A DNA stretch of 64,000 nt, from the NCBI GenBank assembly GCA_963965975.1, contig OZ014411.1, positions 27,080,249 through 27,144,248 of the forward strand. The letters are read 5' to 3'. Source of the DNA: Xestospongia bergquistia (Eukaryota; Porifera; Demospongiae; Haplosclerida; Petrosiidae). Both the position numbers and the translations under genes were made by a program. The notes beneath the pieces are model-generated. The model did no database searches, was not told the origin of the DNA, and was given only the letters and a program-made list of their open reading frames with translations. This document shows positions 1,063 through 62,190 of this stretch, piece after piece; within the stretch, counting starts at the first letter, position 1; every line of letters begins with the position of its first letter.

Positions 1063-1568
1063 TTAATATTTCTTTCTTTTAGCTTCAGATGTCTGCTCAA
1101 CACGACTCTTGTGTTTTGATTTAGGACGGACCTGAAGTTTGGATGCTGGGGCAGCATCACTATAATGCTTGGATATTTGACCGACATCAATCATGCATTC
1201 ATGTTTAGGATGCACCTGATATTGGAATGTTTTTATGGCACCACTCATCTGTTCATACTTAAACTGCACCTCAGGCTTTGCTAAGAACATACGCATCTTA
1301 ACTGCAGTTGACTTATGTTTGACAATAGGGCTCTCAACTGCAGCAATGATAGCTTCCCATGTAACTTCACTAGTCATGCTAGTTGTCCAAGTTTTGATAA
1401 CTTTAAAAAGTTTGTAGCCATCATCTTTATTGCTTCTGTCACAACTCTCTAAAACACTATGTTTGACTTCAAGCGCAATACCAATCTTGTGCCATTCATG
1501 TTCAATATTAGCTAACAGAGTGAGGAGGTCAGTGAGATTGGGTTCTTTCTTCAGTAATCGAGGAATGT
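1063..1568 (-). CDS. Gene A last exon: death domain and basic tail
   Basis: The acceptor TTACAG at 1569-1574 joins in phase 1 to the GTPase exon and makes a split Asp codon. The exon encodes 168 residues. The death-domain-like fold spans roughly the first 105, with the pattern LTDLLTLLANIEHEWHKIG, then a K-T-W helix, an AAVESPIV segment and FLAKPEVQ. Death domains form homotypic complexes with adaptors in apoptosis and innate-immune signalling. Unlike genes B and C, which stop just after the domain, this copy continues for about 60 residues and ends in a Lys/Arg-rich tail that could be a nuclear localisation signal. It is only about half identical to the B domain although the preceding exons are nearly identical. 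Confidence 0.82.
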
Positions 1569-4500
1569 CTGTAATGAAACAATTCACACTTAATAACAAC
1601 ACAACTACTTCCAAACTGTACATGTCCAATAAAATTAATATAAATATATGATTAATTAGATCTGTTTAAGGTTATTTGAGGAAAGTACAATATAAAACTT
1701 GACATATACTCACAGTGGAACAGCTGCAGTTAGCAAGAAACTATTATTTCATGAAAAAATTAAATTATGGAAAAGCTTTATAGCCAGTTCCCAAACAGTT
1801 TTAAAATGCAATTTGGCTGTCTAAAATTATTGTGAAAACTCCCAACAATATTAAACTGGTATGGGAGAAAGAAGAGAACAAAACATTGCTAGTTCCAAAT
1901 TTAGGAACACTATTTAACATGATTGCAAGTTTTACTAGCTATGAAAAGACTCGATAATGGTAAGTAGGTGCTTCGATAAGCACAAGTCAACTTAGCAGTT
2001 ATTTGGAAGAATTATTGAGAAATTGATTAAATTCCTTGCCTGGCCCACCTTACATGTTAAGCATTATATGGTGTTTAATAATATTCAGGAGGGCTTAATA
2101 ATTGCTCAAAAGCAATTGTAGATGTTATTATACTTCGCAAAACAGAAAGTAATAGGCACTTTTATGACAAAGAGCTTGTAAAACTCAAAGTAGCTATCTT
2201 AAACTTTAGCTTCTGCATTAGTGTTTGACTCTATCTACTGTCAGAGCATTCACACTATGTCCTCAATTAGAATAATTACATCAGAGCTTCTAGAAAAAAA
2301 AGTAGTTAGATTGGAGTATGACCTCTCATTTGAAAGCTGTCACAGGAATACACACACACACACAAATGTCATCTGCTTATGACAGTAATTACTTTTAAAG
2401 CTTAAGCTTGTACTAACTAAGTCATGATTAATTTAACATTTTCTTATATGGGTATTCACAAAAAAAGTTTTTGCATGATGCTGTATTACATAGTTTCATG
2501 TCCCATCCTCCTATTAACTACAGTTTACACAAACAAGTACATTATTAGGTAATTACCTTTTAGTTTAGAATTTTCTCCAGCTATATGTTCAATCCAAGGA
2601 TATTGTCGGGTACGGTCGATTGCAACAACTGACATGCCATCTCGACAGCAAGTAAGCATCTCCTTCTCTTCATCTGGACGACAAAGATGATTTCTTGGAG
2701 GAGGACATATTGAGCAAAGAAAGCGTTCCTGAGGGATTGACAGAATGGGTTTATACTGGAACTTCTTCACGACTGCATCTATACCCTCTAAAATAGAGCA
2801 ACAAATAGAGGAGCAATTTAGTGAACGCCCAGAATAATAAATTTCCAGCCAATAAATAGCATCAACTAAGAGAATGGCACCTTCTAATTCAAGACACGTA
2901 AGTCTGATAGCATTACGATACTGCCAAGATTCTTCATTTGAGTCGAAGGATCGGTAAAGATCGAAAGTTGGTGAGATTTGTCGTTTAATAAGATTAACAA
3001 CAAGAGCAGGAAAGATACCTCGAGGAAGTGGTTTCATTTCCCACGTCAAAACAAGAGAATCAATATTTCTTAAGAATGGACGTCTAATATTATCTAAGTT
3101 GTCAGATGTAGGGAGGACACTGGGAAGAAAAAACTTTCCTTGTTCAGGTAGAGGTGCAATAATAAAGATATCTTCCATTAACTTTAAAAAATCATCTGCA
3201 GTAAAATCAGGCGTAAATCCTTCAGGTATACGATCGAAAAGATCTTGCTTGAAAGTGCCTTCATGTTTTAGTTGATGATGGACATTAGGTAGTAGAAAAA
3301 TTTTCATATTTCGCAAGTATTCTACTGCATCAGCAAAAGAGATACTGATTAATTCAGAGAGCTTATCGAAAAGTGGTTGTGGGTGTAAGAAGACAACATT
3401 AGGGAGAGTTTTGGGAAAATACAAAAAAACTGTCAGGTCATGGTAGTACATGAGTGCAGCCTCCACGTCCATTCTATCCATCATTAGATTCCCTCCAATC
3501 CTCATGCACTCTTTTTTGCTAACTATCATTGTCCCTTCAGTGTTTTGAAACTCCTCTAGATCTAGTTGAAATAAATACCATCGAGCTGGTATGTTTGCCT
3601 CGATATAAGAATTACAAACAATGCTACGAATTGACTCAGCCATTTCTCGTTCAGATTCACCTCGAGCAATTGTGTTGATAGGAAAAATTACTTTCTCTTT
3701 ACCATCACTATAATTGAGCCTCACATCAGAGAACTTGCTTAAAGTTGACCACAGAGTAGTGTTCTTGTTGTCTAAGGTCTCTCCAATGCACTCATGAACT
3801 TTATCATAGAATGTGCCAAGAATTAGAAGAGAAGGCTTGTCATAAGAACATGTGATATGGATATTGTGCAAATGTGGTTGATCCACTGACACTAGTGAAC
3901 GAAATGATGATTCAAGAAGTTGCATATTGGTGATTTGACGTTCCACTGGTTCTCCAATCTGCTTACCTTTGAAGCTGAAGTAAAATTTGGTTCGATCTTC
4001 AAGCTTCTCATTTAATTTGAGGGTGAGTATACTAACTGGGTTATATCGTAGCAATGCAGGTGCTATGTCTAGGAAGGCTGCTTGACCACCTGAATCTACT
4101 ACATAAACCCAATGAGACTGATGGAGCTCTGGGGATTCCTCTACAGTTGGTAAGATTCTCACAATTTCACTAGTAGCAGGAGATACAAGGTTAGGTGTTG
4201 ATTGTTGTGGTGATGTAGATGACTGTGACATAGGTATTTCTTCATCATTAGATGAGGATGAAAATTCATTGTCACCTCCACTTTTTGTTGCAGATGTTAT
4301 TGGAGAAGACTCAACTCCATGTTTTATTTGTTTGGCTATCATTTGTTTGACTGAGTGTGGGTTTACTTTATTCCATATTGGACAAGAAGAGTTGCCTGGT
4401 TCACCTCCTGTCACAAAACCGGTTGTCCCAACCCTCCTTACTTCTGGTGCAGTCACTGCTAAAGTACTATCATGCTCTTCTGGAGGAGGTTCATCTAGGA

Positions 4501-7500
4501 GAAGTTTTACAACTGAAGTTTTTCCAGTTGCTGGTGCTCCAGAGGTAGCAAGCTTTGACCACTTTACTTTGACATGGCCTTCCTTAAGTGCTTTATGCAT
4601 AACACCAGAATAATCTATTAAAAAAGAAAAGAAAATTAATATAAATAAATACAATCAACATGCTGGTATTCGTATTAAATGTAGTTATAATATATAAAGT
4701 TAGTATATGTGATTAATAAATTGGATAGAACACATAGTTATAATAATTGCAATTGACATTTTTTTAATTTATAAGAGAATCAATTTGAATGTAATATAAA
4801 TAAGTTTCTAATGCTGCCTGATAATACCTAATGAAAAGCCTATGAACTAATAAAGTAACGATGATGTATACTTTTACAAATATTACACAAATACAATACA
4901 ACTACAATGAAGTGATGTAAACAAAACACAAATTATTAACAACTTTTTTAGGAATAAAGTTATTACACTAAGTTATAATAATGAGTAATAATACTTTAAG
5001 AATAAGAGTATAACAATAAAAAATGACCAACTAATTGTTGTAATGTAAACATTGACAACATTTTAATCTCTTCACATATAGTGTTATGTTAGTTCTATGG
5101 CAGCTAAGGTCATACACAGGTTAAAGGTTAAACGGTTATCACATAATAAGCTTAGTTTCAAAGGGTGCCTAGAATGATCAGATTAAGGGTAAGTTAACAA
5201 GTAGAGTTACTGAATTAATATAATTACATTAATAACACACGTTTACAAAGTTTGATTTATGAGTTTATAAGCTGCCATGTGCAAGTGTACAAAGTAATTA
5301 CCTTGACAGTTACATACACTAGCATAATAAGCTTACATAAAATTATTGTCTAGTATAATTTAATACAACTGTTTTTAATGTATTACATAAAGATATAGTA
5401 GAATAGTACTGACACAAAGTGAAGTGTGGCTAAATTTAAACAAATTTTTAATATTTATAACATTTATTACAAATATTGCCAAAGGAGAGAATAAGTACAA
5501 GAACTAGTCGAGATTGTCCATTAAAAAAAGAAATTGTTCTTAATTTGGACTGAAATAGTGTCGCACATCCATAGCACACATAAATGCAATGTTGTAAACA
5601 TTGGCTACACTTACAATGAATGTTGGCTTAATGTATGCACAAATGCAATAAATGAATTGTACTTATTTACATCATTAGCATTATACAATGCTACAGTGAA
5701 GATATAGCTAATTATGTAGCTGAATTCAGACATGTTGCAACAAACTGTGAGTTTGGGAACTATTTACATGATGCTTTATGAAATTATTTCTTGTAAGTTA
5801 TGTAATAGATAGTCCTTCCATTGAAGGTCAAAAAAGATAACTATGTCAAGGTATTTGAAAGTCTTACTTTCTCAATGAACTTTTGAAAGATTTTTAAAGA
5901 CAAAGGAGGATGAGAATGTTTACATGGAATGGCCATGACTTAGGTCTCTTTACAGTTCAATTTAAGTCCTACTCTATTTATTTAGACACCAACTTCGAAT
6001 TGAAAATTATCAATATCTTCCAGATTATTTATAACCTTATACAATAATATGTCACCAACAAAAGTAACCACGTTGCAGCTCTTAGAGTAGAATATATGAC
6101 CAATACTGTTTGTCTACAAAATCAACAGCAGAGGACCAGAATAGAGTTGTGTATGACATGCAAACAAGCTGGAAAAGTTTCAGAGAAATCCATTGCTTGC
6201 TACCTTCTTTAGTCAATGAGTTAAATGTGTTTAAAACATAAAGTTGTGATCCAAAATATCAATCAATTCTAATGAATTAAAGAGTCAACATGTGTAACAG
6301 TATCAACCTTTATCAAGTCAAAAAAGACAGGTGACACAGAATTTCCACATTCAGTAAAGAGTCCCCAGTCAGTTGCCATTGAAAGAAGAGCATCATGAGT
6401 TGAGCAATTCAATAGGAAACTAAACTCTAATTCATTTAGGATTTTGTCCTCTTTCAAACATCATGTTAAAATATAAAGACAATTCTTTCAAACACTTCAG
6501 AGACAATAAGGAGAAGTGAAATATTGTGAGACCAAAGTATGAGAATCCTTCTTAGAACAGGAATTATGTTAGATATCTTCCAACATTTTAGGAAAAACAA
6601 TGGAGAAAGATAAAATAGGGAATTAAGTGATTGTCCAATAAATGTTTTCATCATGGTTGTACAGATTTCATTTGATCCACACTAGCTTTTGTCTTTAAGG
6701 AGCTAAGTAGACTAGAAATTCAGCACATCTAACAAATGAGAAGAAAACATTAGGGCTAGAAAATAGGGCAAGAATATTAGTATGAACCCAAGAGAGACTA
6801 GATATAAAAATCTATTAGGATATAAAATAACCCCAAGAAACAACAGGAGGGGTGGGTTGATCATTTGACCTAAACTACAGGTCAAGGACCAGACTGTTGC
6901 AGGTAGAGAGTGTTTCTCCAGATTATTTTGCATATGAGAATGTAGCTTAGGCTGTCGTCTCATTCCTGATGGAATTTGAACCTCCAATGGACTACTTTAG
7001 ACTTTGATTTTTTGACAGAGCTAAAGAACCTTTATTTCTTTTCAAGTTAATTTAGAAAGGCTGGAAGATAACCATGGAACACATTTTTAATGATATGCAA
7101 GTAGATGAAATACAGTGTGACATGACTGTAATGAAAAGATTGTCCAAAACTAATAAACATTATCTACAATGGATGAATTGTATGAATTTGGGTCTTCATT
7201 AAATAAAAGAGATTTGCAAAAGGAAAATTGGTATCTTGATATTGATTGATACATGTCACATTACCTTTTTTTAATAGATAAAGAAAAATTAAACTTCAAG
7301 TCTAGTTGGACAGAAAGGTGATCGGAGATTTATGGTGGTACACAAGCATCAATTCTGATTCACTGTATTTCTCCCATATATATATACAGAATATTATTTT
7401 TAAAATTACTTTTAAAAAGATTAGCATACTAATAAGCATAGTTGTACTAACTACAAGAAGATGACATGCAGTGGTGTGGCCTGACATTTAAATAACATGG

Positions 7501-10500: not shown

Positions 10501-13500
10501 CTATTTAGTAGCCTCTCATCACTCTGAGACTCTCCATCTGAAGATTCCACACTCATATCAAAGGAAAAATAATAGGTGAGGCTTAATGTGCTGGAATACT
10601 GACTAGATTCGTCACTTTCAAGGTCTTCAGCCAATGTGCACTTATTTTACCAGTGTAGCACTCCTTCCCCTTTAGACATCATGTAAGAGCCCAGTCATAC
10701 TAGGAAGAACATTGAAATTGCTGAAGAAGTTTTGAAAGAGAGCCAAAAAGAAGCTTGATTTTAACGGTGATAACAATTAGACAAAAAACAGGCCTTTTGC
10801 TAGTATTTGGTAAAACAATTCCACCAATACTTGTATAGCAGAAGCTGATGCCAGATTGTAAAGATCCAGCATCTTTCTATCCACCTATATTTATGATACT
10901 GAATATCATCTGAACCATCTGCATAATCCCAATGTCCTTTTGAGATTACCAATGACTTATAGTAAAGATTCTACAAGAGTTTCTTCAATCTAGGTCAAGT
11001 GCACGACAGTACTACTAGTTATATGTATGTGATCAGCTAACAGTAGCTGCTCATAATGATCCCATACTGTCAAAAGTGTTATGATACACTAAAGAGGGAT
11101 GGCCTGCTATAATTGAAGGGCTGAGAACCATAGTGGTTTAACTGCAGTGTTTAGTATTGCCTTAAGACCAAACCTATATTCCATTCTCACTGCTTTATGT
11201 ACTTGACAGTAATAAAGGCAGTACCAACTAATGATATTACAACAAGTTTGTCTATAGAGCTTGCTTTTCAGTTCTATTAGTAAAGTTACAGTGATCAACC
11301 AACACAAGCAATAGCAAGTACACTTATAACATCTGATAGTTTAAATCAATAATGAAAACAATATAATTGACAAGTAAGAAGGTACTGTAATTATCACATA
11401 TACAATATAGAACATAAATGATATACCTTGTATTGCATTCTGTAATGCTTCAAATATAACAGCATTATTCTTCTCACCTGGTTTGACATAATCAGCTGGT
11501 GTTTTGTTGTCTTTGTCTACTATGTTGGGATCTGCACCTTTAGATAGTAACAGCTTAATTGTATCAACATGACCACCATCACATGCATGGTGTAAAGGTG
11601 ACCGGCCATTCTATAAAACAAAATAAAATGAAAAGAGCTAATACAAACTGGTTATAAACAATTACAATATAAATAGTACAGTTATACTAATGATGTGATG
11701 ATTACAATTATTACAGTGCACTCAAAAATGTAGTATAATGATGTGTAGACCTTACCCACACTAAGATTTGTAAAAGTAATTAGATTATATTAACAACTGG
11801 TACATCATTTTAAGTACAAACAACAGTGAATGTTTGCAGTCATAAAAATGGAAGATACTATTACATCTATACAAGCAATATTTACTTGTCAGTATCAAAT
11901 CAGTCATGGCCCAAGTAATGTAGAAATATAACTGATAAATCTTTTGGTTATTGTTTGCAATATTGCTATTACCAAAAACTCAACACATAATACAAATACT
12001 GATTATATTATACACAGTGTACCATACATACTTATTATAAATACTGTTCCTACAATTTTAAAACAAACAATTATGTCATATTAATTTGCTATATCAACCT
12101 CTAATAATTCACTACTGAAATTACTATATCATGTGTTCTAATTTCCAGAAATTCCTCTAAATTTGACACTTGTACCTCATGATTTTATGTATCAATCTAA
12201 CAGTAACATTCAGTAGCCAAGTAAGAAATTCAATAGTCTTCAATGTTAATTTACTTGGGGTCCCAAACCCATTTAAAGATGTGTTATCCCCTCTAAATGC
12301 ACTATATAGAAACTTCACTGATGGCCTATTAATAATTGTAAATTGATTTAATCAGTTAACTCCCTCTTGAAACTATTTAAAAATAGTTTGCAACTTCCAA
12401 CCTATTTTGTTTACTTTAACCTCCAAAGTTGCCTATGAAATCACTATGGCAATGACTTAGCAATGCCATTCCTAAGAAATAATTATAGAATGATGTGCAT
12501 AACTGTCTTATATATTGGAGAAGCTGATGAGGTTAATAAATTTCCATAACTATTTCTAACTAGAACTTAGGGGTCTGCATAGAAGGTTCCTAGAGACCTA
12601 CTCAGCCTAATAGAGTGTGTTTTCACGACTGGGAGAAGACAGTTACCTTCATTATGATGTTACATACTAAGAGGAACTCGTCATTACAAGACATGATCAA
12701 GCGCTTGTGGCTTGAATATAATGAAATTCTAAAATAGTGATATTAAATTGAACTACTGATATTCACAGTATTGCTATAGTATATATTCAAATATAGTTAT
12801 TTGTCAAATAGTACCACTGAGCTTGCTAACTGATCAGGTTACAATAATTATCACATCATGTTTAGACTCATGATGATCTAAGAAAGTTTATTCTTGATAA
12901 CTGTCTACAGGTAATTTGTTAATGTTTCAGCGATCATGTGAAAGTGGTTTATAGTGTCTAAATATTATTTATAATATCAGCTGAAAATAAAGTCAAAAAA
13001 TATACTTTTGTTACTAAAGAAGGTTAAAGGGATTACGAAATTTAAAACCGTATTCTTTGTAATTGCTGCTATGCTTGACTTCACCCTAGATCATTCTCTA
13101 AAAATAGTAAAACAACTTAAGAGAATTTGATGTTACATTTAATCGATTGTGTGGGAGATTCTTGCTTCAAGCTTTTTTCCTTTTTTGGCATTTTGTGCTG
13201 TTGGTCAAAACTATAAAGCATCATTTGTAAACCACTAAAGACAAACAATAACATAGTAATACACATGTGTATTACAAGTGTCAGTCTCTGATTTAGAATG
13301 TATTAAAATTTTTCAAGTGGTTTTATCATACTATGCAATAACTGTATCAAAGACTATCACATTACTCATTTGAAATACATACATGTACAATGAGAGAAAG
13401 TTGATAAATATGATTTCTCTTTTTAAGACTTTTACAGGCTTAGGGTTTAGCCTTATTTGTTAAATAGTGTATTATACTGTAATGTACTGTGATAATACCA

Positions 13501-31800: not shown

Positions 31801-32129
31801 TTACTTTAGTAGTTTATATTTTGATTGTACTTCTGGTTTGGCTAAGTATTGTCGCATTTTCTTTGCTGTAGATGGATGATCTACAATAGGGCCCTCCACT
31901 GCTTCAATAACTGCCAGCCATGAAAATTTAGAGGGAATTGCATCGATCCAGGCTTCAACAACCCTCATCATTTTGACAGTGTTGCTTTCACAACTATAAC
32001 GTAAGCCACCAAGGACATCTTTTTGTACATTTAAAGCCACTCCAACTAGCTCCCATTCATAATTGATATCAGCTAGTAGACCTAGAAGATCAGTCAGTTC
32101 AGGCTTCATTGTCAATATACTTGAGATAT
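31801..32129 (-). CDS. Gene B last exon: death domain
   Basis: 329 nt, acceptor ATGTAG, phase 1, encoding 109 residues and a stop. It starts [20 protein letters not shown] and ends [15 protein letters not shown]. It is about 80% identical to the gene C domain but only about half identical to the gene A domain, although the preceding GTPase exon is much closer to A. Death domains assemble with partner death domains in cell-death and NF-kB type signalling. Confidence 0.88.
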
Positions 32130-49700: not shown

Positions 49701-51233
49701 AGTTAGTTAATTGTCAGATGAAAAATATTTAGTTAGTTATAGTTAGTTAAGTAAAAGTCAAATATGCTAAACTAAATGGGTTTTAGTTTTAGTTATAGTT
49801 AACATAAACAACACTACCTCATACCTATACAAGAAAGGACATTTAGTGACTTAAATCCAATATCTTAATAATGATGACATGATATGTAACTCATAGTTAT
49901 AATGGCAGATCAAATAATAAGACACACTACAACATATACCTTTAAGTTCTCATATTAAGGAAATCAACATCTAATACAAGACTTTCTGATCAGTTTTAGG
50001 TTTAATATTCAGTATTTTCTACTAATACATTTTAATGACCTTTATATATTATCTGTCCAATGTAAATAGACAGTATCTACAATATCAGAGAAGTGGTAGT
50101 ATTAACTAAAGTCAAGTGTACATACTATTACATAATGTTACATAATACAATAGGTATATTCAAACAGTAATTATTTTTATCTAACACTTACATTATTAGT
50201 TAAGTTTGGGTCTGCATCTGCTTTTAGTAACTCAGACGTCACAATAGGATATCCCATACTAGCTGCTAAATGTAGAGGAGTCAATTGGTCCTAAATGAAA
50301 AATATAAGATAATGTTATTTACTTAATAATCAATTACTGCTATATTTATAATGTTATTTACTTAATAATCAATTACTGCTATATTTTACACATGATAATA
50401 ATCCATTAAAGATAAAATTAGTATGATATCATAACTGACACTATGTAGTCACATTATGATAGTACATTACTTCATTATAACATTAACTGAACTGTATCTG
50501 AGACAATGTGAGTTTATAGATGAACTTAGAGTCAACACAAGTACTAAGATCAGTTGTAACTAACAATTAACTGGTTTTTTATGTTTATGCGAAGATAATT
50601 AACTAGATCTATATTTCATTATATGATTATATCTTATTGTCTGTATACTATACTACAAATATTATAAACTGTTTGAGTTATAGAGTTATTATAATGAGAT
50701 ATTGTAAGTATTTGTTAACGTAGTTTGGTATTAATAACATATTCAATATACTAGTATAAACACTGTATAACATATTATTATGCATGATATATCTACTGAT
50801 AGTTTGATAGTAATTCTGTTAAGATTGTGTTGATGAGCTATTAATATTGGCTCATTACTTGTATACTATCTTCAAACGATACACTTATGTGTGTGTGTGT
50901 CACTACTATATATTATCAATATGATATGATTACTTTTATTAACTTACAATGTCAGGATTATGATAATTTGGATTTCCTCCTCTTTTTAATGCTCTTTTTA
51001 CATTATTAACATCTCCTTCATATGCTGCATACCACAACTCCACATTCTTTTATAAAGATAATGATCATATATATAACATATTGCAGCATATAATAATTAT
51101 ATAAATCAATTCTTACAATTATAACTCTACTAGGTAGATATCATATCTACAATAATAATACTGATATGTAAATAGTATCACATAATATGATATAACAATA
51201 GAAATGACTTACTAGCTCATCTTGATAGGACAT
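31801..51233 (-). CDS. Gene B: ankyrin - Roc-like GTPase - COR-like - death domain protein (7 coding exons)
   Basis: Coding exons, 5' to 3': 51233-51213, 51046-50948, 50290-50192, 45511-45413, 39030-38847, 35709-33631, 32129-31801. Phases agree at every junction and the sum is 2910 nt, or 969 aa plus stop. Layout: four ankyrin repeats (about residues 8-150), P-loop from residue 193, DSGGQ at about 348, COR-like region, Cys/His cluster and death domain. It is paralogous to gene A with one ankyrin exon fewer, and the death domain ends within a few residues. Introns are crowded with hAT and LTR insertions, yet all splice sites and the frame are intact, so it is probably functional. Role inferred as for gene A: a kinase-less DAPK-like signalling protein. 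Confidence 0.85.
32130..33630 (-). other. Gene B intron containing the A/C recombination switch
   Basis: The first few tens of bases next to the death-domain exon match gene C (59969 onward). From about 32440 to 33600 the intron matches gene A (1650-2500). The switch must lie at about 32160-32440. No gene is seen inside. Confidence 0.65.
33631..35709 (-). CDS. Gene B large exon: Roc-like GTPase, COR-like region, Cys/His cluster
   Basis: 2079 nt, phase 1 in and out (donor GATG|GTAAAT). It has the same elements as gene [37 protein letters not shown], the [24 protein letters not shown]-like block, and a cluster CSVC...HLC...CC. It is seven residues longer than A, in the serine/acidic insert between P-loop and DSGGQ (which includes [19 protein letters not shown]). 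Protein identity to A is about 90%, to C about 60-65%. Confidence 0.87.
36712..37157 (+). other. Unrecognised exon-like fragments on the plus strand
   Basis: Two open stretches look like neighbouring exons. One is at about 36712-36835 after an AG (encoding ...[20 protein letters not shown]... and [17 protein letters not shown]). The other is at about 36949-37157, between TTATTCAG and GTAAGTG, encoding [19 protein letters not shown] and [19 protein letters not shown]. The amino-acid composition is protein-like, but no family is recognised. It may be a piece of another host gene or transposon captured in the intron; it is antisense to gene B. Confidence 0.3.
37729..37757. repeat. (AT)n microsatellite
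   Basis: About 29 bases of AT dinucleotides in a gene B intron. Confidence 0.9.
38370..38723 (-). mobile_element. LINE debris
   Basis: A stretch matching the [11 protein letters not shown]-type end of the endonuclease (38410-38370) is shared with the LINE relic at 7290-7330 in gene A. The adjacent 90-codon frame is probably a further decayed part. Dead. Confidence 0.45.
38847..39030 (-). CDS. Gene B exon: fourth ankyrin repeat plus linker
   Basis: 184 nt, phase 0 in and phase 1 out, between TTATAG and G|GTATG. It encodes [31 protein letters not shown] and a 28-residue linker to the GTPase. Same length and phases as gene A 11427-11610. Confidence 0.88.
39031..39499 (-). other. Gene B intron, left of the LTR element
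   Basis: AT-rich intron sequence; the first 200 bases match gene A 11611-11800. No gene is seen. Confidence 0.65.
39500..39754 (+). repeat. 5' LTR of the old element
   Basis: About 255 bases, diverged partner of 42213-42437; both contain TATAAATATG near the start and end in TACAACA. Confidence 0.65.
42213..42437 (+). repeat. 3' LTR of the old element
   Basis: 225 bases from TGTTGTAAAG to GGTTACAACA. The last 75 bases and the following flank recur in gene A at 12767 onward. Confidence 0.68.
42438..43471 (-). other. Gene B intron between the two insertions
   Basis: Intron sequence matching gene A about 12840-13440, with one internal stretch (about 42820-43250) absent from A or strongly diverged. 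No gene is supported. Confidence 0.6.
43480..45210 (+). mobile_element. hAT (ZBED-type) DNA transposon with internal inversion
   Basis: The inverted ends TAGGGCTGGGCGGTAT (43480-43495) and ATACTGCCCAGCCCTA (45195-45210) differ by one base. An exact 8-base target duplication CTTATTTG flanks them (43472-43479, 45211-45218). Plus strand: a BED zinc finger (about 43720-43895, CRMC...HLQANH) is followed by the transposase core ([20 protein letters not shown], to about 44490). The next segment ([35 protein letters not shown], about 44495-44815) reads on the minus strand. The remainder ([27 protein letters not shown]) is again on the plus strand. Frameshifts and stops show it is inactive. Gene A has the empty site. 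Confidence 0.92.
45413..45511 (-). CDS. Gene B exon: third ankyrin repeat
   Basis: 99 nt, phase 0, between ATTTAG and GTAATA. It encodes [20 protein letters not shown] then [13 protein letters not shown]. It differs from the gene A exon 13654-13752 at only a few residues, mostly at the surface turn positions. Confidence 0.88.
45512..47136 (-). other. Gene B intron, segment shared with gene A
   Basis: Matches gene A about 13753-15420, including the TIR element at 46012. About 46590-46790 is not found in A. No gene is seen. Confidence 0.65.
46012..46364. mobile_element. TIR element (GCCTNGTACCCAGG family), copy 3
   Basis: Left end GCCTTGTACCCAGG, right end CCTGGGTATGAGGC, flanked by TTA and TAA. 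It is the positional counterpart of the gene A copy at 14295-14865 but shorter (353 bp). The insertion therefore predates the A/B duplication. Confidence 0.65.
47137..47658. mobile_element. hAT-type MITE built from ATTACT repeats
   Basis: 522 bp with ends CAGACCTGGGGT / ACCCCAGGCCTG and an exact 8-base target duplication GTATTGGA (47129-47136, 47659-47666). The interior is largely tandem CTATTA units in both halves. There is no coding capacity. Gene A carries the uninterrupted site at about 15420-15430. Confidence 0.88.
47667..48569 (-). other. Gene B intron
   Basis: Matches gene A 15435-15900. It contains a decayed copy of the GTTTCATTTAGA element at about 48118-48240 (AGAAGAATGGGAGC, GAGGCTATATATTACA). 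No gene is seen. Confidence 0.6.
48921..48977 (+). other. Hammerhead-ribozyme-like core motif (candidate)
   Basis: The plus strand reads CTGATGA, then AGGCC-TTT-GGCC (a four-pair hairpin), then GAAAC. This is the conserved hammerhead core order CUGAUGA - stem II - GAAA. The next bases GTTCTG...CAGAAT can form a stem III-like hairpin. One extra A lies before stem II, and I could not find a convincing stem I. Penelope-like elements and retrozymes of animals are known to carry such ribozymes; function here is unproven. Confidence 0.3.
49299..49455. repeat. Tandem duplication, about 87-base unit
   Basis: The unit TTATCTTCCTCTTCTAACC...ACTGCTCACT occurs twice in direct succession with few differences, inside the hAT-like element. 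Confidence 0.85.
49825..50191 (-). other. Gene B intron next to second ankyrin exon
   Basis: Matches gene A 16620-16841 in its last 250 bases. No gene is seen. Confidence 0.65.
50192..50290 (-). CDS. Gene B exon: second ankyrin repeat
   Basis: 99 nt, phase 0, between TTTAG and GTAAGT. It encodes [20 protein letters not shown] then [13 protein letters not shown]. It starts like gene A 22818-22916 (DQ-TPLH) and continues more like 16842-16940. It thus represents the single ancestral exon that doubled in A, or a fusion of the two. Confidence 0.87.
50291..50947 (-). other. Gene B intron
   Basis: 657 bp; a 40-base local duplication at about 50308-50385 and a short GT run near 50890. Nothing else is recognised. 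Confidence 0.65.
50948..51046 (-). CDS. Gene B exon: first ankyrin-like repeat
   Basis: 99 nt, phase 0, between AAAAG and GTAAGT. It encodes [20 protein letters not shown] then [13 protein letters not shown], a capping ankyrin repeat. Counterpart of gene A 25260-25355, with one extra codon. Confidence 0.86.
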
Positions 51234-52648: not shown

Positions 52649-52761
52649 ATCATATTTGCATGTAATTGCATAGATGACATCTATACTTGGGGTATTAGAA
52701 ATAGGATATATAGTAACATGTGACAATTTACTTCATTCATTATACTGATATGTTAATAATA

Positions 52762-53452: not shown

Positions 53453-53525
53453 CACGTTTTGTTGAGTAAGAAATACTATACTGTAATAAATAATGTCTTA
53501 ATCTTGAAGACTACTGTATATCCTT
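53453..53525 (-). other. Gene B leader exon, copy 3
   Basis: Intact donor CGTG|GTAAGT (53452-53447) with a GATAAAAG box at 53561-53568. The surrounding 200 bases (53281-53480) are nearly identical to 52206-52405, showing a tandem duplication of about 1.07 kb. It may act as an alternative, distal first exon. Confidence 0.5.
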
Positions 53526-54144: not shown

Positions 54145-54357
54145 GTTGAAATGTCTTAGGCAGAGGGTAATAGATATGAAAGCTAACTCATTGCAATTGG
54201 CTGTTGCTATGGACTACTTAGATATATTTTGATTGGTTGTTGTATTGTATATATAGCTTTGTTTTGTTTGTTGATTTTTAGTATTGGTAATTCTCCAGAC
54301 AAACAAAGTCTGAAATGTTCTTTCATATCTATTACCCCTCTGCCTAAGACTTTTCAG
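54145..54357. mobile_element. Fold-back element with about 37-base inverted arms
   Basis: The left arm (TCTTAGGCAGAGGGTAATAG then ATATGAAAG) and right arm (CTTTCATATCTATTACCCCT then CTGCCTAAG) are inverted copies about 140 bases apart. The right arm recurs at 1-66 behind gene A, where the left arm is beyond the window edge. Non-coding. Confidence 0.7.
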
Positions 54358-55795
54358 CAAAAGACAATTCTTTTATGTAAAATTAAAAGTTGATTTAAAG
54401 ATAATTTTTCCATGTTCTAATCGTTCATTAGAACTTGTCATACATGTGATTCTGCTATGGAAAAGCTGAGAGAAGAAATTATGTTTGTAAGGAACGTGTA
54501 AAGTAAAGGAACTCGAGTAAAATATCCACAGCTACTTTGTCTCAAATGAGACAAATAATTAATGATTAATGTGCATATTAAAACTATGTAATAATGATTT
54601 ATGCTAGTAAATAAGTAATTAATTCAATTAATTTCTCCTTCCACTAGTAGTTGCAATATGTATTTGCTTTATTAATTTTAATGTACAATGTTGCTTAGAC
54701 TATAGTGTATAAACATATTGAAGAATGTATAGTTTTAGACTACTTATTAGGTAATATTATCACCTCATCTTTGAAAGTAGACCAATGCCCACTTACAAAT
54801 TAAAGCCATAAGATGAATTCATAGCATTCAGTGAAGGAGATGATTATATATAGATTTTCCAAAAATCATTAATCTTTGGGATAGTAACAAATCATCTATA
54901 TATATTATATTTGATGAGTGCTTATGTTGAAAGCATTCTCTAAGTAAAAATGCTAAAATAAAAACATCACTTCGCAAAGAAAAGATAATTGAAAAAAAAA
55001 ATTAATTAATAAGAAACATCTCACCTCATCTTTGAAAGTAGACCAATGCCCACTTACAAATTAAAACCATAAGATGAATTCATAGCATTCAGTAAAGGAG
55101 ATGATTATATATTACTTTACTTTGACCTGGCCTTCCTTGATCGCTTTATGTATAACACCAGAATAATCTATTAAAAAAGAAAAGAAAATTAATTTAAATA
55201 AATACAATAAACATGTTGGTATTCCTATTAAATGTAGTTATAATATATAAAGTTAGTATGTGTGATTAGTAAATTGGATAGAACACATAGTTATAAGGAT
55301 TGCAGTTGACATTTCTTTTAATTTATAAGAGAATTAATTTGAATGTAATATAAGTAAGTTTCTAATGCTGCCTGATAATACCTAATGAAAAGCCTATGAA
55401 CTAATAAAGTAAGGGTGAAGTATACTTTTACAAATACTATACAAAATACATTACAATCATAATGAAATGATGTAAACCAAACACAAATTATTAACAATTT
55501 TAGATATAAAGATATTACATTAAGTTATAATAATGAGTAATAATACTTTAAGAATAAGAGTATAACAATAAAAAATAACCAACTAATTGTTGTAATGAAA
55601 ACATTGACAACATTTTAATGTCTTCACATATAATGTTATGTTAGCTCTATGTGGCAGGCAAAGGTCATGTCACAGGTTAAAGGTTAAACAATTATCACAT
55701 AATAAGCTTACTTTAAAAGTCTGCCTAGAATGATCCGATTAAGGGTAAGTTAACAAGTTGAATTACTGAATTAATATAATTACATTAATGACAGA
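54358..55795 (-). pseudogene. Gutted fourth gene copy (D)
   Basis: 54358-55010 matches the gene A 3' flank (66-720). 55113-55167 matches the first 55 bases of the GTPase exon (D-YSGVIHKAIKEGQVKVK), with its acceptor ATAG. 55168-55795 matches the intron upstream of that exon in gene A (4615-5250). Everything between, i.e. the rest of the GTPase exon, the intron and the death-domain exon, is gone. A block of about 90 bases (54764-54856) is repeated at 55020-55112, right at the joint. The frame stops immediately after the remnant, so this is a pseudogene. Confidence 0.8.
54764..55112. repeat. Direct repeat pair at the copy D deletion joint
   Basis: About 90 bases (starting TCACCTCATCTTTGAAAGTA) occur at 54764-54856 and again at 55020-55112, with few differences. 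The second copy abuts the exon remnant. Confidence 0.85.
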
Positions 55796-57530
55796 AGTTA
55801 ACAATTATATTCAGTCACTTTATATATTACCTTTTGATAGCTTCAATTTTAAAAAAAATTGAAATTCTTTTCTTTAATGTGTTTCTTCATGATTAAATAA
55901 AAAAAACACAGGACAAATATTGTGAGAATTACTTACAAAGACTTCAGACATTTCTTTTTTATTAATTGATTTGAATTATAATAAACAAGTCAACATGTTG
56001 TACTTGTTTAAAACAAAATGCATAATTCAAAACTAATAAAGACAATCTATGTGACTAAATGGTTGCAAAAGTTTCAGCCTTAGTTGGTATTGTCAGCAAA
56101 AAAAAGTGATTCTCATGATCATTTTCTAACTATGTTGTAATTGTATTACAATATATTGTGAACAAGTTGTAAATGTAGTTTTTTTTAGAATAGAAAGGAA
56201 TTATCATCTATATGTACAGTTTCTTTTATATTAATTGACTAATTCAAATAAAATATACTATAATTACAGCAACTAACTGAAGGTGTCATTTAAATTTTAT
56301 TACACCATGTTATAAGATAATCATAAAAATTGTGATATGATTATATTCAATTTGACTGACAATTACCATTTCTGTTATATTTATGGGTTCTTTCTTGAAT
56401 TATCCACTTTTTTGATCACTATGAGCGGGTGTGAGCATTAACAGCAAACAATAGCTCGTGGAACTTGAGGGTAAATTAATGATTTCATGACAACTTCAGA
56501 CATATTGACTTGAAGGAGAAACGATAAACAAACAAAAATAGTTGACAATTTTACAATTCATGATTCATAATACCATTGATATTTAGTAATATCTGATCTT
56601 CGGTTATTGTGAAATAATTTGTTACAAGTACTTCGTAAATATTATCAATACAATTATGATAATTGAATAATTTAGTTGTATTTAGACAATAACACACTAA
56701 CTCTGGGAACAAAAAGTTTACAATAATGACTACCATAAACCAAACAAGAATGAACTACGTGAATTAAGACATTGTCTAACACGTATATAGTAAGAAACTT
56801 TAGTTTATGGATAAATACTATATAGTAGCTGGGAAGCAGACATGATTTCATTTCATTAATAACAGGTGTTATATAATAAGGTGTAATACATGATGTTTAT
56901 AACATGAAATTGCAAATTGAAATTCTTCTTAACTTATTGTACATATATTGCTGGAACTGACATATTTGTAGCTTTGGAAATTGCCAAATAATTGATAGGA
57001 TGCTGTATATAAGAGCTAAGATAGCCTGTAATGCAAGTGACTATGTCCTTGTATACATGTGCACAGTACAGGTATTACATCATTTATTAAATTATAATAA
57101 TTATTACATTATGTATGTACATGTACAAACAGCTATATAGTAAGAACTTGGTACTTATCAAAATGTGTTATATTAAGTATACCTCTAACGTATATTTATG
57201 TATACCTCTAACTTATAAGAGGATGTATAGATAAAAGATTAATGGATCCTCATGTTATAATAAGTTAAGTCTTTATTGTATATTAATGCTGATTAATTAA
57301 TTCCATTTAATCTATGATTCATTGCTTTCATGTTTTCATATCAATACAAGACACATAGTGTTCCAAATACATCACCAACAGAGTAACAATTGGCAGACTT
57401 AGAAGTAATAAAGGCATCAAATCCTAAGAATGTACAAAGAATGTATAGAGACTTCGTGACATTTCATAATGAACATTTAACTGTACAAGGAGAGGATTTA
57501 TCCTTTACTTTTGTTCAATAATATTGAATA
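55796..57530. other. Intergenic region between D and C
   Basis: Very AT-rich sequence. The frame at 56736-56551 has no family resemblance or splice context. I see no gene, RNA or mobile element here. Confidence 0.6.
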
Positions 57531-58640
57531 GTATAACTGTGTTTAAATTAGATGATAAAAAGTATTTAGAAATGCCATAATAATATCAATTTCTAATAAT
57601 GAAACCTGTTTCTGAATAATGTCAACACTCAAAACATGCACTCAATGTGCATTATTATGTACACATTCAACATTTAGTGAAAGATTTGTATATATCTTAG
57701 AAAAGATCAATGTGTCCACTGTGTTATCTTGTTTGTATGGTCTAGCTTTTGACTCTTTTACAATGCTAAATCTTCTATAGAGTATAACTCTTTCAATTGT
57801 GAGTTACTGCTGCCTGGATATTGCCTCTTGTGATGTAGAGCAATACTATCCTTAGTACAAACACCTCTTCAAACAATATAACAACTGTTTTCCTTGAATT
57901 AGTTAAAATTGTTTTTAACCCTAAAACAACAACTAATACACCAAACACATAGTAAATATTACACTGATTATTGAATTAGAGTGTCATTAGTACCAGAGTA
58001 CTGCTATAAAATCTAATCTGAGATGAAAATATAACCTTCAAAACATGCCCTCAAAGCCTTTCATGTACATTCAACAAGGTCTATCTAGACAGTGTGTACA
58101 AAACAATACAATAGTGTATTTAGAGTGAACTTTTGAAGTTACACTTATGAATAAATTTATAACCTGCAAATCTTTAAATAGATGGCACTGAGAGCGTGCT
58201 CTTAATGCAAAAATAAACCATATGAAATATATACATTTAAAAATATGTAATTATTTATCCAAGACAAATAATTATATTTTAAGTATCATAGTACACCTTC
58301 TATAGTACATCATGGTTTTTAACTTTAAGGATCTTAAATTAGTGATTACAATGCAATTGTGACTTCAAAGATATTCATGTTGAGCAATAACTCATTTCAG
58401 CAAATGTACATTATATGCATGTACAGTACATAAATTGAAGTACAAATCGCTAGTAAGTTTGCACAACAGTTCAAACATAATAAGAATTATTAAAGTTAAA
58501 GAAATCAATTAAAAGAACACAATCAAGTTGGAAAAATCTACAGAAAAATATTAAAATTAAGAATGCTTGTAGCATATAATAAAACAAAAAGATCATAATA
58601 AGAAAACAAATATTGCAATATGAGAGATATAATATAGTTG
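57531..58640. other. 3' flank of gene C
   Basis: Homologous to 29984-30987 behind gene B. No gene is seen. Confidence 0.7.
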
Positions 58641-58941
58641 TTACTTTGGTAGTTTATAATTTGCTTGTACTTCTGGTTTGGTTAAGTACTGTTGCACTTT
58701 CATTGAAGAAGATGGATGATTGACAATAGGTCCTTCCACTACTTCAATAACTATATATCAACCATGAGAGTTCAGAGGAAAATGTATTGATCCAGCTTTG
58801 AACAATTCTGATCATCTTGATTTTGTCACTTTGACTACCGTAACATAAGCAACCAAAGACACCTTGTATCTTTAAAGCCACTCCTATTGTTTCCCACTCA
58901 TACCAGCTAGTAGACCAGAGATCTGTCACTATAATTGATAT
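58641..58941 (-). pseudogene. Decayed second death-domain exon behind gene C
   Basis: The minus strand retains SWYEWETIGVALKIQGVFG, MIRIVQSWINTFSSELSWL, then a frameshift, and further on the GPIVNH and LTKPEVQANYKLPK-like end. It lies 0.7-1.0 kb downstream of the intact death-domain exon 59640-59968. It is better preserved than the B relic (30988-31286) but is interrupted and lacks some residues near its start. Confidence 0.75.
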
Positions 58942-59639
58942 CTCTACGAAAGGAAAATTACTAATAACAGAGCATTCTTTGTTAGTCATAAAAAAGACTC
59001 AGCGTGCCTAGTCAAACTATATTCAATTATGAAATATAATGTATTGTAGCAGTAATTATATCCTATTTTATTCTTAAAATGAAAGCTAAATATAAAAACT
59101 TAAAACAATTAGAATTAAAAACACCTAAAAATGTAAAATTACACTCTATGACTATTCATCTCTTCAAGCCAAAGTGTCTGACATTTACAATTAATATCAA
59201 CAATTGTAATACTATGCCAAAAGCATCTTACTATTCTTTTAACATCATTGGACAACAGAGATTCTATCCTTCACATGTATAATATTGCTTTGAAATTACA
59301 AGATCTTTAGTCAGTAATTAAGATGCAATTGTGACTCCAAAGACATTCATTTTGTTAAAGTTTTTTAACAAGCATACAATATAATGAAGTACATAAATTT
59401 AAGTATAAATTACTAATAAATTAGCAAAACATATTTCAAACCTATTGAAGTTTATTAAGGTTAAACAAATCAATTAAAAGATAAAATTAAAGCAATTAAG
59501 TCAGAAAAATTTACAGCAAAATATTAAAACTAATAAAAGTTGTAACAGATAATAAGACAAAAATACCATTACTCAAAAAAACAGAGAAATTCAGAAGTTA
59601 TCAAAATAAGTATTGTAAAATAGGAGATTATATAGTAAG

Positions 59640-59968
59640 TTACTTTGATGTTTTATAACTTAATTGTACTTCTGGTTTGGCTAAGTACTGTCGTATTGTC
59701 ATTGCTGTAGATTGATGGTTCACAATTGGGCCCTCCACTGCTTTAATAACTGCCAGCCATGAGAATTTAGAGGGAAATGCATCAATCCAGGCTTCAATGA
59801 CCCTAAAGATCTTGATAGTGTTGCTTTCAGGACTGGAACGTAAGCCACCAAGGACATCTCTTCGCACTTTTAAAGCCACTCCAATTATCTCCCACTCATA
59901 GCTTATATCAGCTAGTAGACCTAGAAGATCAGTCAGTTCAGGCTTCATTGTCAATATACTTGAGATAT
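59640..59968 (-). CDS. Gene C last exon: death domain
   Basis: 329 nt encoding 109 residues, the same length as gene [21 protein letters not shown] at the start, [15 protein letters not shown] at the end. About 80% identical to gene B. A conserved plus TTTATT (59067-59072) downstream may be the poly(A) signal. Confidence 0.88.
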
Positions 59969-62190
59969 CTACAAAGAGAAAGTAATAATACAGAGTATCC
60001 TGTGTTAGTTATGATAAAGACTCAGTGTGCCTAGTAAGAATTTTTTATCATGGAAATATAATGTACTGTGGTAGTAACCACATAATTCTTTATACTTAAA
60101 ATAAAGGATGATATAACAACATGAAACAATTAGTACAACTAAAAGTGTAAAATTACCTTCTGTGACTGGTAATTTCGTCTCTTCAAGCCATGGTGTCTGA
60201 CGTTCATGATTAATATCAGCAATTGTAATGCCATCCCAACAGCATGTTAGTATTGTCTTAGCATCATCTGGACGACAAAGATGTTCTTCTTTATACGTAC
60301 AGAACGAACAGCGAAAACGTTGCTGTGGCATGGTCAGTATGGGCTTATATTGAAATTTCTTAACAACAACATCGATTCCATCATAAACTGCTTGTCGAAT
60401 CAATAGACATCGATCAGAACGGCCTGAGTAATGCACCTCCAACCAGTATACAGCATCAACTAATAGAACAGCACCAGCTAAGTCAAGAGATGATAATCGG
60501 ATGGCATTGCGATACTGCAACACTTGATCAGAACATCCTGAAGATTGGAAAATATCAAATTTTGGTGCTGTTTGGCGATTAATCATATTAACAACTAAAG
60601 CAGGAAACAAACCTTGAGGAATAGGGTGCATTTCCCATGTCAAAACAAGAGAATCCATATACTTTAAAAAAGGACTTCTAATTGTATCCAAGACGGAGGT
60701 AGTAGGAAGGACACAAGGAATAAAATATTTTCCTTCTTCAGACAAGCGAGCAACAACAAGGATATCCTCCATTAACAGCAAGAAATCATCTGCTGTAAAA
60801 TCAGAAGTAAATCCATCAGGAATACAATCTAAGAGCTCTCGTTTGAATGTGCCTTCATTCTTTAGTTGACAATGGGCATTTGGAGGTAAAACAATATTCA
60901 TTTTTCTCAAATGTGCAACAGCATCAGCAAAAGAAATACTTATTAACTCTGAGAGCTTATTGAATAATGGCTGTGGATGAAGGAATACCACATTAGGAAG
61001 GATATTAGGAAAGAACAAAAAGATTGTCAGATCATGGTAGTACATTAAACATGCTTCCACATCTCTTCTATTCATTTTAAGTGCATTTCCAATTCTAAGG
61101 CATTCATTTTTGCTAACTACCATTGACTCAGTAGATTTTTGGACTTCTTCAAGGTCAAGCTGAAACAAGAACCATCGAGCTGGAATTTCTGCCTCAATGT
61201 AAGATCGACAGACAACACCACGAATAAACTCAGCCATTTCCTTTTCATTCTTACCTCTTGCTGTTGTATTGATAGGAAAGATAACTTCTTTTTCATCTTC
61301 ACGATAACTGAGTCGCACATCTTTGAATTGCTTTAAATTTGACCACAGAGAAGCATTTTTGTCATCCAAAGACTCCCCAATGCATTCATTTATTTTATCA
61401 TAGAATGTGCCAAGAACAAGTAGAGTCGGTTTATCATAAGAACATCTCACGTGAATATTGTGTAAACGTGGTTGATCGATTGATGATAGTGAACGAAATG
61501 ATGATTCAAGAAGTTGCATGTTGGTGATCTGCCGTTCTACTGGTTCTCCAATCAGCTCACCTTTGAAACTAAAATAAAATTTTGGCCGATCTTTAAGTTT
61601 CTCATTTAATTTGAGAGTGAGTATACTAACTGGATTGCTTCGTAGCAATGCAGGCGAGATATCTAAAAAAGCTGCCTGACCACCTGAATCAACTGCATAG
61701 ACCCAGTGTGATTGATATAACTCAGGAGACTTCTCAACTCTTGGCATTATCTTAGCAATTTCTGTGGCTGCAGCAGAAAATGATTGAGAAACAGAGGACG
61801 CAGCCTTTGATTCTTTTGAAGTACCATCATCATCAGATGATGATGAAGACTCATTATCATCTTTATTATGTTTAGTGGACTTTGATGAAGCAGCTTTAAC
61901 TCCTTGTTTCATTCCTTTAGCAAGCATACGTTGAAGTGATTCACGACTCACTTTATTCCACTGTGGGCTAGAAAAATTGCCTCCTGCTACAAAGCCAGTG
62001 ATGTCTACCCTCCTTACTTCTGGTTTAGTACCAACTGCAGTACTATGGTGTTTTTCTGGAGGATTTTCATCTAGCAACAGCTTAATGATAGAAGATTTTC
62101 CTGTTCCAGGTGCTCCTGATGTAGCAAACTTGGACCACCTTGCTGTCACATGGCCTTCTTTCAATGCTTCATCAACAACACCAGAATAAT
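59640..62190 (-). CDS. Gene C, last two exons (partial): Roc-like GTPase - COR-like - death domain
   Basis: Exons 62190-60157 and 59968-59640 are joined by a 188 bp intron (donor GAAG|GTAATT, acceptor TTTGTAG), phase 1. The first exon begins in phase 1 (D-YSGVVDEALKEGH), so upstream ankyrin exons are expected beyond 64000. It has the same architecture as genes A and B, with more divergence in the GTPase exon. Conserved P-loop (GAPGTGKSS), [10 protein letters not shown] and the death domain indicate a functional gene. Role inferred as for genes A and B. Confidence 0.83.
60157..62190 (-). CDS. Gene C large exon: Roc-like GTPase, COR-like region, Cys/His cluster
   Basis: 2034 nt. The P-loop is GAPGTGKSSIIKLLLDE and the G2-like segment HHSTAVGTKPEV. 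A Ser/Asp/Lys-rich insert ([20 protein letters not shown]) follows, then [17 protein letters not shown] and LGTFYDK. The COR-like block is YYHDLTIFLFF / [13 protein letters not shown]. The cluster reads CSFC...HLC...CC. The acidic serine tract is in the same place as in A and B but differs in sequence and length. About 60-65% identical to A and B. If the following intron is retained, the frame runs on into a hydrophobic stretch. Confidence 0.86.

What the first reader, a model, noticed from the sequence alone, without database searches (positions are those of the whole stretch)
1063..62190. Tandem family of kinase-less DAPK-like proteins (ankyrin - Roc - COR - death)
Three intact genes and one remnant on one strand share the domain order of death-associated protein kinase from its ankyrin repeats onward, but no kinase exon is visible: the coding start lies directly before the first ankyrin exon in A and B. 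Seen directly: exon structure, P-loop, DSGGQ, COR-like pattern, death domain. Established: DAPK carries ankyrin, Roc, COR and death domains after its kinase, and ROCO proteins use the COR for dimerisation. Inference: these are stand-alone GTP-controlled death-domain platforms, possibly innate-immune receptors that expanded by tandem duplication.
Basis: partly seen in the sequence, partly recalled or inferred. Interest (0 to 1): 0.72.

Follow-up and report, generated by a model that had tools for sequence, protein, structure and literature searches.

The report
Swappable-sensor ROCO death-domain gene family
These are real animal genes that join ankyrin repeats to a GTP-binding switch and a death domain with no kinase, and they belong to a large family in this genome in which the front part is exchanged (ankyrin repeats in some clusters, a dead caspase in others), which looks like an inborn cell-death or immune sensor system, although nothing has been tested in the laboratory.

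Summary
Genes A and B read as clean exon chains (about 1053 and 969 aa): short ATG exon, 4-5 ankyrin exons, one Roc-COR exon of about 2.05 kb, terminal death exon. Gene D has only its last two exons in the window; the rest lies just outside. The fourth copy is a deletion remnant. No kinase is seen; in all three genes an in-frame stop lies 21 nt before the ATG. The window copies miss Pfam's Roc, COR and Death models, but paralogs pass COR-A (3.6e-11) and Death (1.7e-6), and a bridging paralog passes Roc and matches LRRK2.

The family is far bigger: 66 scored relatives. Its nearest relatives found are other ROCOs, not the genome's DAPK-like gene, so DAPK is matched by layout, not shown ancestry. 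In all 30 scored members on contigs C11 and C12, and none of the other 36, a caspase-like exon without catalytic residues sits just upstream of Roc-COR, where sister-clade members carry ankyrin. Roc-COR is under purifying selection; ankyrin exons change mostly non-synonymously; A, B and D are mosaics. Best reading: GTP-gated death-domain scaffolds with exchangeable sensors, probably immune. No transcript or laboratory evidence.

The parts
25483..25503 (-). Gene A start exon, coding part, MSSQDKL
   Evidence: GT donor; in-frame stop 21 nt upstream, inside the same candidate exon
25260..25355 (-). Gene A ankyrin-like exon 1
   Evidence: AG/GT borders; similar to gene B exon 50948-51046
22818..22916 (-). 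Gene A ankyrin exon 2 (phase 0, 99 nt)
   Evidence: Pfam Ank 1.2e-6
16842..16940 (-). Gene A ankyrin exon 3
   Evidence: Pfam Ank 1.4e-9
13654..13752 (-). Gene A ankyrin exon 4
   Evidence: Pfam Ank 1.2e-7
11427..11610 (-). Gene A ankyrin exon 5 plus linker, ends in phase 1
   Evidence: Pfam Ank 2.4e-11; splice phase fits the Roc-COR exon
2557..4614 (-). Gene A Roc-COR exon
   Evidence: Open frame; 85% identical to B; Roc/COR by relatives
1063..1568 (-). Gene A death exon, terminal, with extended C-terminal tail
   Evidence: Profile of 19 such exons matches PDB death domains; Pfam Death in 7 of 19
51213..51233 (-). Gene B start exon, coding part, MSYQDEL
   Evidence: In-frame stop 21 nt upstream
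50948..51046 (-). Gene B ankyrin-like exon 1
   Evidence: Splice borders; weak ankyrin score 5.4 bits
50192..50290 (-). Gene B ankyrin exon 2
   Evidence: Pfam Ank 2.5e-8
45413..45511 (-). Gene B ankyrin exon 3
   Evidence: Pfam Ank 7.8e-7
38847..39030 (-). Gene B ankyrin exon 4 plus linker, ends in phase 1
   Evidence: Pfam Ank 1.7e-10
33631..35709 (-). Gene B Roc-COR exon
31801..32129 (-). Gene B death exon, terminal (ends KLLK*)
   Evidence: low-confidence model resembles death domains
60157..62190 (-). Gene D Roc-COR exon (rest of gene D upstream, outside the window)
59640..59968 (-). Gene D death exon, terminal (ends KTSK*)
54305..55804 (-). Gene remnant: start of the Roc-COR exon joined to 3' flank, about 3.8 kb deleted
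   Evidence: BLASTN to gene A, 86-93% identity
31000..31300 (-). Degenerate second death exon 3' of gene B
   Evidence: Similar to the death exon, frame broken
58640..58945 (-). Degenerate second death exon 3' of gene D
   Evidence: Similar to the death exon, frame broken

Best explanation
The window carries three members (A, B, D) and one remnant of a large family of kinase-less ROCO proteins: a swappable N-terminal module, a Roc-COR GTPase switch with a long acidic/serine-rich insert between the P-loop and DSGGQ, and a C-terminal death domain. Shown here by sequence: open exon chains, domain identities through relatives, no visible kinase, family size, the exchange of ankyrin for a non-catalytic caspase-like module in a sister clade, constraint on Roc-COR versus little constraint on ankyrin, and mosaic genes. 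Inferred: the ankyrin (or pseudocaspase) part binds a ligand or partner; this alters GTP loading and dimer state of Roc-COR; the death domain then recruits other death-domain proteins and starts a death or inflammatory response. In logic it would be a GTPase-based counterpart of NLR receptors, kept diverse by tandem duplication and recombination between modules.
For: Exon chain and phases; phase-1 acceptor AG|AT at the Roc-COR exon in 27 of 27 fetched family loci. In-frame stop 21 nt before the ATG in 3 of 3 genes. COR-A over positions 1-143/143 in a 57%-identical paralog, 3.6e-11; 13 of 30 at E<=0.01. Bridge paralog L014: family profile E 3.8e-21, Roc 7.5e-11, LRRK2 3.4e-7 with P-loop, G3, G4 and COR in order. 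DSGGQ, GxPxxGK[ST] and T..D each in 30 of 30. Death profile: THOC1 death domain 1.5e-4, FADD 0.016; 18 of 19 listed PDB sequences are death domains. Family: 66 loci scored of 624 candidates. Caspase-like exon upstream in 30 of 30 scored C11/C12 members and 0 of 36 others, Pfam C14 5.5e-20. Tree of 30: caspase clade 0.958, ankyrin clade 0.999. Non-synonymous:synonymous changes, ankyrin versus Roc-COR exons: A-B 80.5:14.5 versus 83.2:84.8, Fisher p=6e-9. Mosaicism.
Against: No transcript or protein data. The window's own exons match no Pfam Roc, COR or Death model, and Pfam Roc matches 0 of 30 members at E<=0.01. AlphaFold of the large exon failed; the death-exon model is low confidence with no Foldseek match at E<=0.001. 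pN>pS inside the ankyrin exons is borderline (p=0.027, 0.033, 0.054 for A-B, A-D, B-D; 0.058, 0.11, 0.028 in the first count with one wrong codon and fewer exons), the pairs share sequences, and it is absent in the three comparisons with L026, so relaxed constraint explains it nearly as well. A death exon was found within 8 kb downstream in 38 of 66 members (11 of 66 upstream as control; hit lists capped), so for 28 it is not shown. GTP binding, ligand and signalling are inferred.
Confidence: 0.6

Rival explanations
1. They are DAPK genes that lost the kinase, doing DAPK-type apoptosis or autophagy control.
For: Same Ank-Roc-COR-Death order; a DAPK-like gene with ankyrin repeats, Roc (9e-12), weak COR-B (0.0012) and Death (1.2e-14) exists in the genome.
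Against: The family profile scores that gene's two pieces at E 0.13 and 0.19 but two other ROCOs at 2.7e-25 and 3.7e-22; the sister clade has a caspase-like module instead of ankyrin. The DAPK-like pieces are shorter than the others and no full tree was made.
Confidence: 0.12
2. Same architecture, but not immune: a lineage-expanded signalling, allorecognition or developmental family whose ankyrin exons are merely under relaxed constraint.
For: Ankyrin non-synonymous divergence A-D (0.095) is close to the 10% DNA divergence of the stretch around ankyrin exons 4 and 5, as neutrality predicts; no expression data.
Against: Frames and splice sites of the ankyrin exons stay intact in A, B and D; caspase-like and death modules point to death signalling.
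Confidence: 0.25
3. An N-terminal kinase or other domain is encoded by an alternative first exon that splices straight to ankyrin exon 1 and was missed.
For: Ankyrin exon 1 starts in phase 0, so such a splice is possible; only 127 of 1263 kinase candidates were scored.
Against: No listed kinase match near the window; TBLASTN with the kinase end of a ROCO kinase finds nothing below E 0.5 in the window plus 20 kb upstream, with its positive control working; ATG exon with upstream stop in all three genes.
Confidence: 0.04
4. The copies are decaying pseudogenes spread by retroelements and duplication.
For: One remnant and degenerate death exons lie in the window; 4 of 66 relatives carry in-frame stops.
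Against: 62 of 66 relatives have no stop inside the match; dN/dS 0.12-0.41 in 12 of 12 chosen pairs.
Confidence: 0.02

Closest known systems
DAPK1 (third ROCO group of PMC6337361, passages seen)
   Same: Ankyrin repeats, Roc, COR, C-terminal death domain; no LRR
   Different: No kinase seen; nearest relatives found are other ROCOs; long insert between G1 and G3 (142-162 residues from G1 to G3, versus about 51 in the LRRK2 alignment); large family instead of one gene
Brown algal LRR-ROC-COR genes (PMC11378527, abstract and passages seen)
   Same: Expanded ROCO family, one repeat per exon in a constant phase, variable repeat exons, proposed immune receptors
   Different: Ankyrin (or pseudocaspase) instead of LRR; C-terminal death domain; here whole N-terminal modules are exchanged
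Animal ROCO proteins with TIR or death domains in sea anemones and Aplysia (PMC5094078 and PMC9334734, passages seen)
   Same: Roc-COR combined with death-fold or TIR domains in putative immune proteins
   Different: Kinase-death-TIR or LRR/TIR types; no Ank-Roc-COR-Death or caspase-Roc-COR-Death family in the passages seen
AP-GTPase (Roc-COR) conflict systems of bacteria (PMC8195603, passages seen)
   Same: Roc-COR switch between a variable sensor and an effector
   Different: Bacterial, LRR sensors, many C-terminal effectors; here animal genes with a death-domain output
NLR / NACHT receptors (recalled)
   Same: Sensor repeats, NTP-driven switch, death-fold output, clustered expansion
   Different: Switch is a Roc-COR GTPase; no NACHT match at E<=0.01 in 30 members

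Membership tests
ROCO | Roc GTPase domain with G1, G3, G4 motifs | tested here: met
   By relatives: motifs in 30 of 30; bridge paralog L014 Roc 7.5e-11 and LRRK2 3.4e-7. Against: Pfam Roc on the members themselves 0 of 30 at E<=0.01
ROCO | COR domain directly after Roc | tested here: met
   COR-A 1-143/143 in a close paralog, 3.6e-11; 13 of 30; 31 of 66 loci overlap a COR-A hit; window copies themselves below reporting
ROCO | GTP binding/hydrolysis and nucleotide-dependent dimer cycle | not testable with these tools
   Needs protein
DAPK | N-terminal kinase | tested here: not met
   In-frame stop before the ATG in 3 of 3 genes; no kinase match; an alternative first exon is not excluded
DAPK | Calmodulin-binding autoregulatory segment | not tested
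   No search made for it
DAPK | Ankyrin, Roc, COR, death in this order | tested here: met
DAPK | The genome's DAPK-like gene is the nearest ROCO relative | tested here: not met
   Profile E 0.13/0.19 against its two pieces, 2.7e-25 and 3.7e-22 against two other ROCOs; no full tree made
Death-domain superfamily | Death fold by sequence or structure | tested here: met
Caspase (C11/C12 clade module) | Caspase fold by sequence | tested here: met
   Pfam C14 5.5e-20, caspase-3 1.9e-21
Caspase (C11/C12 clade module) | Catalytic His and Cys | tested here: not met
   No His at the SHG position in 8 of 8 readable loci, no Cys at the QAC position in 8 of 8 readable loci, of 10 distinct loci; in 3 of the 8 a Cys lies one residue earlier (positions recalled, alignment)
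NLR | NACHT ATPase domain | tested here: not met
   No NACHT at E<=0.01 in 30 members

The most novel reading that the evidence does not exclude
An early-branching animal has built an NLR-like immune system on a ROCO GTPase instead of a NACHT ATPase: dozens of cytosolic sensor-switch-death proteins in which a constrained Roc-COR-death core is combined, at one phase-1 splice boundary, with fast-changing ankyrin repeats or with a dead caspase, and in which tandem paralogs keep exchanging sensor, switch and death modules to renew their repertoire.
Probability: 0.35. Interest if true: 0.82.

Novelty: new variant of a known kind. Interest (0 to 1): 0.64.

Why it matters
ROCO proteins are known mainly through LRRK2 and DAPK1, where GTPase and kinase are in one chain; the review seen in passages (PMC6337361) lists three architectural groups, with the death domain only in the kinase-bearing DAPK1 group. 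A large kinase-less group with a death output would show what the Roc-COR switch does without a kinase and would parallel the brown algal ROCO candidates for immunity. The ankyrin-to-pseudocaspase exchange at one fixed splice boundary makes the sensor-swap idea directly testable. No description of Ank-Roc-COR-Death or caspase-Roc-COR-Death families turned up in the listings of nine searches of the held library, of which I opened passages of six papers; most subscription papers and all preprints are outside it.

Tried and rejected
AlphaFold of the Roc-COR exon from three window copies gave pLDDT 30 and is not used. Pfam and PDB searches with single window exons found no Roc, COR or Death; profiles and paralogs did. 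The PDB profile search with the 30-member alignment gave only weak G-alpha and ABC hits (best 0.039), not used. Death-exon relatives did not overlap the 150 listed Pfam Death hits (0 of 150); both lists are capped at 150, and single relatives do match Pfam Death. An ankyrin exon lies within the 1.5 kb upstream flank of 11 of 18 ankyrin-clade loci, not in 7 of 18, and in 0 of 9 caspase-clade loci (home-made ankyrin profile); in A and B the nearest lies 3-7 kb away. N-termini of the C3, C13, C7 and most C4 members were not seen. My first ankyrin dN/dS count included one intronic codon of A and missed exon 1 of D; one search corrects it (p-values moved, direction unchanged; odds not changed). A death-exon count was in the wrong frame and is not used. 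The host organism was not identified by any tool; many death domains, caspases and a DAPK-like gene point to an animal, and a demosponge is my guess. Caspase catalytic positions and ankyrin binding positions are recalled.
Full report
What is in the window. The window lies at 27.08-27.14 Mb of contig C1 (28.2 Mb) of a 146 Mb genome in 21 contigs. On the minus strand there are three open frames of 2.1-2.3 kb with 62-85% protein identity to each other. Their exon borders are AATAG|ATTATTC on the 5' side and G|GTAA on the 3' side. A death-like exon follows each, and one-repeat ankyrin exons (96-99 nt, phase 0; the last one 184 nt, ending in phase 1) precede it. D's five upstream exons lie outside the window at window-relative 65274-75582, so 'three intact genes' is right only with that sequence added. 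The remnant at 54305-55804 keeps upstream flank and about the first 18 codons of the Roc-COR exon joined to 3' flank.

Is it kinase-less? In A, B and D the ATG exon has an in-frame stop 21 nt upstream of the ATG, downstream of the candidate acceptor at 25-26 nt. A TBLASTN search with the kinase end of a ROCO kinase from the same genome found nothing below E 0.5 in the window plus 20 kb upstream, while the same query found its relatives. The kinase family search lists no match near the window, but only 127 of 1263 candidates were scored. An alternative first exon joined directly to ankyrin exon 1 remains possible.

What is the large exon? Alone it matches no Roc or COR model. A paralog at 57% identity matches COR-A over all 143 positions at 3.6e-11, and 13 of 30 members match at E<=0.01; none of the 30 matches Pfam Roc at that level. 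Two more distant ROCO paralogs, L012 and L014, match the family profile at 2.7e-25 and 3.7e-22 (best stretches 1.9e-22 over positions 178-555 and 3.8e-21 over 7-549 of 682; 11 sequences compared). They pass the Pfam Roc and COR-A cut-offs, and L014 aligns with LRRK2 from the P-loop through G3 and G4 into COR, E 3.4e-7. GxPxxGK[ST], DSGGQ and T..D are kept in 30 of 30 members. The G1-G3 distance is 142-162 residues in 30 of 30, against about 51 in the LRRK2 alignment, so the switch I region carries a long, variable, acidic and serine-rich insert. AlphaFold with three sequences failed. I conclude Roc-COR by transitive homology.

How big is the family? The Roc-COR exon of D finds 66 scored loci on 9 contigs, 47-100% identical, 62 of 66 without in-frame stops in the match, from 624 first-look candidates of which 66 were scored. 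With 115 other COR-A matches at E<=0.001 (part of them under Pfam's cut-off) this makes 181 Roc-COR places in capped lists. A death-type exon lies within 8 kb downstream of 38 of 66, against 11 of 66 upstream as control, using capped lists.

The front end is exchanged. Directly upstream of the Roc-COR exon on contigs C11 and C12 lies a caspase-like exon (Pfam C14 5.5e-20; caspase-3 1.9e-21). The C14 search scored all 103 candidates in the genome and listed 99 matches; 30 of 30 scored C11/C12 members have one 77-986 nt upstream, and 0 of 36 members elsewhere have one within 3 kb. Of 18 other family loci with 1.5 kb flanks, 11 show an ankyrin exon there, and 0 of 9 C11/C12 loci do. The Roc-COR acceptor is AG|AT (phase 1) in 27 of 27 loci; the caspase exon's donor was matched by my motif in 5 of 9 loci and is phase 1 in each. 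The caspase catalytic His and Cys positions are replaced in 8 of 8 readable loci each, of 10 distinct loci; in 3 a Cys lies one residue earlier, but the His is gone there too. A tree of 30 Roc-COR exons rooted on three other ROCOs gives a caspase clade (support 0.958) and an ankyrin clade (0.999), that is, one exchange between sister clades among the sampled members. The C3, C7 and C13 members and all but one of the C4 members are not in the tree.

Selection and mosaicism. Roc-COR dN/dS is 0.12-0.41 in 12 of 12 chosen pairs; the insert has the highest ratio of five segments in 9 of the 10 pairs where it is defined. Ankyrin exons of A and B show 80.5 non-synonymous and 14.5 synonymous differences, against 83.2 and 84.8 in Roc-COR (Fisher p=6e-9); A-D 35:4 (p=6e-6) and B-D 56:9 (p=4e-7) agree (Roc-COR counts), while comparisons with L026, one exon each, are weaker (p=0.21, 0.058, 0.033). 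pN>pS within the ankyrin exons gives p=0.027, 0.033 and 0.054, and is absent with L026. The pairs are not independent. Because the stretch around ankyrin exons 4 and 5 differs by 10% between A and D and ankyrin pN is 0.095, ankyrin codons change at about the neutral rate: relaxed constraint or diversifying selection. The genes are mosaics: A and D share 84-98% DNA identity over the main upstream stretches (0.8-5 kb each) but 73% in Roc-COR; A and B are 87% in Roc-COR; B and D share the death exon and 3' flank at 85%, while A's death exon is only 47% identical to B's in protein.

Relation to DAPK. A DAPK-like gene exists on C10 with several ankyrin repeats, Roc, a weak COR-B and Death; no kinase was found in the 9.9 kb fetched, and I did not look further upstream. 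The family profile does not see its two pieces (E 0.13 and 0.19), but these are shorter than the other sequences and two full ROCO exons also scored that low. So the window genes share DAPK's post-kinase layout but are not shown to be its descendants; they are ROCO proteins of a layout not among the three groups of the review seen.

How it likely works (inference). The N-terminal module senses or docks, Roc-COR switches state with GTP and dimerises as in other ROCOs, and the death domain recruits partners. A non-catalytic caspase module would act as a docking or decoy element. The immune reading rests on architecture, expansion, variable ankyrin exons and module exchange, not on any functional data.

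Noticed in passing
window 18341-22180, minus strand: A Ty3/gypsy-type retroelement (type recalled; reverse transcriptase 7.7e-21, RNase H 1.9e-34, integrase 1.8e-12) sits in gene A's intron between ankyrin exons 2 and 3, same strand as the gene.
   Followed up: partly
L061:4290-4574 and L062:1107-1451, minus strand: Upstream of the caspase-like exon lies another conserved exon that looks CAP-Gly-like to me; Pfam gives no CAP-Gly match for it and only a weak CAP_GLY tail (0.03) at the start of the caspase exon.
   Followed up: partly
L051:3629-4039, 4278-4610, 4887-5015: One C11 member is followed by three tandem death-type stretches (the third cut by the locus end), so the number of death domains per gene may vary.
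   Followed up: no
L056, L057, L058: Another ROCO group has ankyrin repeat, Roc and a COR-like region in a single exon of about 700 aa; one (L056) has a related death exon downstream. It is distant from the window family (E 0.0004-0.19) and may be a second, independent Ank-Roc-COR-Death group.
   Followed up: partly
window 27426-29978 and 51330-53519, and L060: The 5' flanks of A, B and D are 89-98% identical over hundreds of bases, more alike than most of the genes, which suggests recent conversion of the promoter regions.
   Followed up: partly
G000 contig C10, 1.40-1.70 Mb: A cluster of ROCO exons, some with Pfam-positive death domains just downstream, once two in a row.
   Followed up: no
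window 43836-44615, plus strand: A 259-aa open frame that reads like a hAT-type transposase to me, but Pfam gives no match.
   Followed up: partly
end of the Roc-COR exon, in gene A about 2640-2720: Conserved Cys/His cluster at the end of the COR part: C628, H637, C639, C650 and C651 (gene D exon numbering) are invariant in 30 of 30 members; possible metal site.
   Followed up: no
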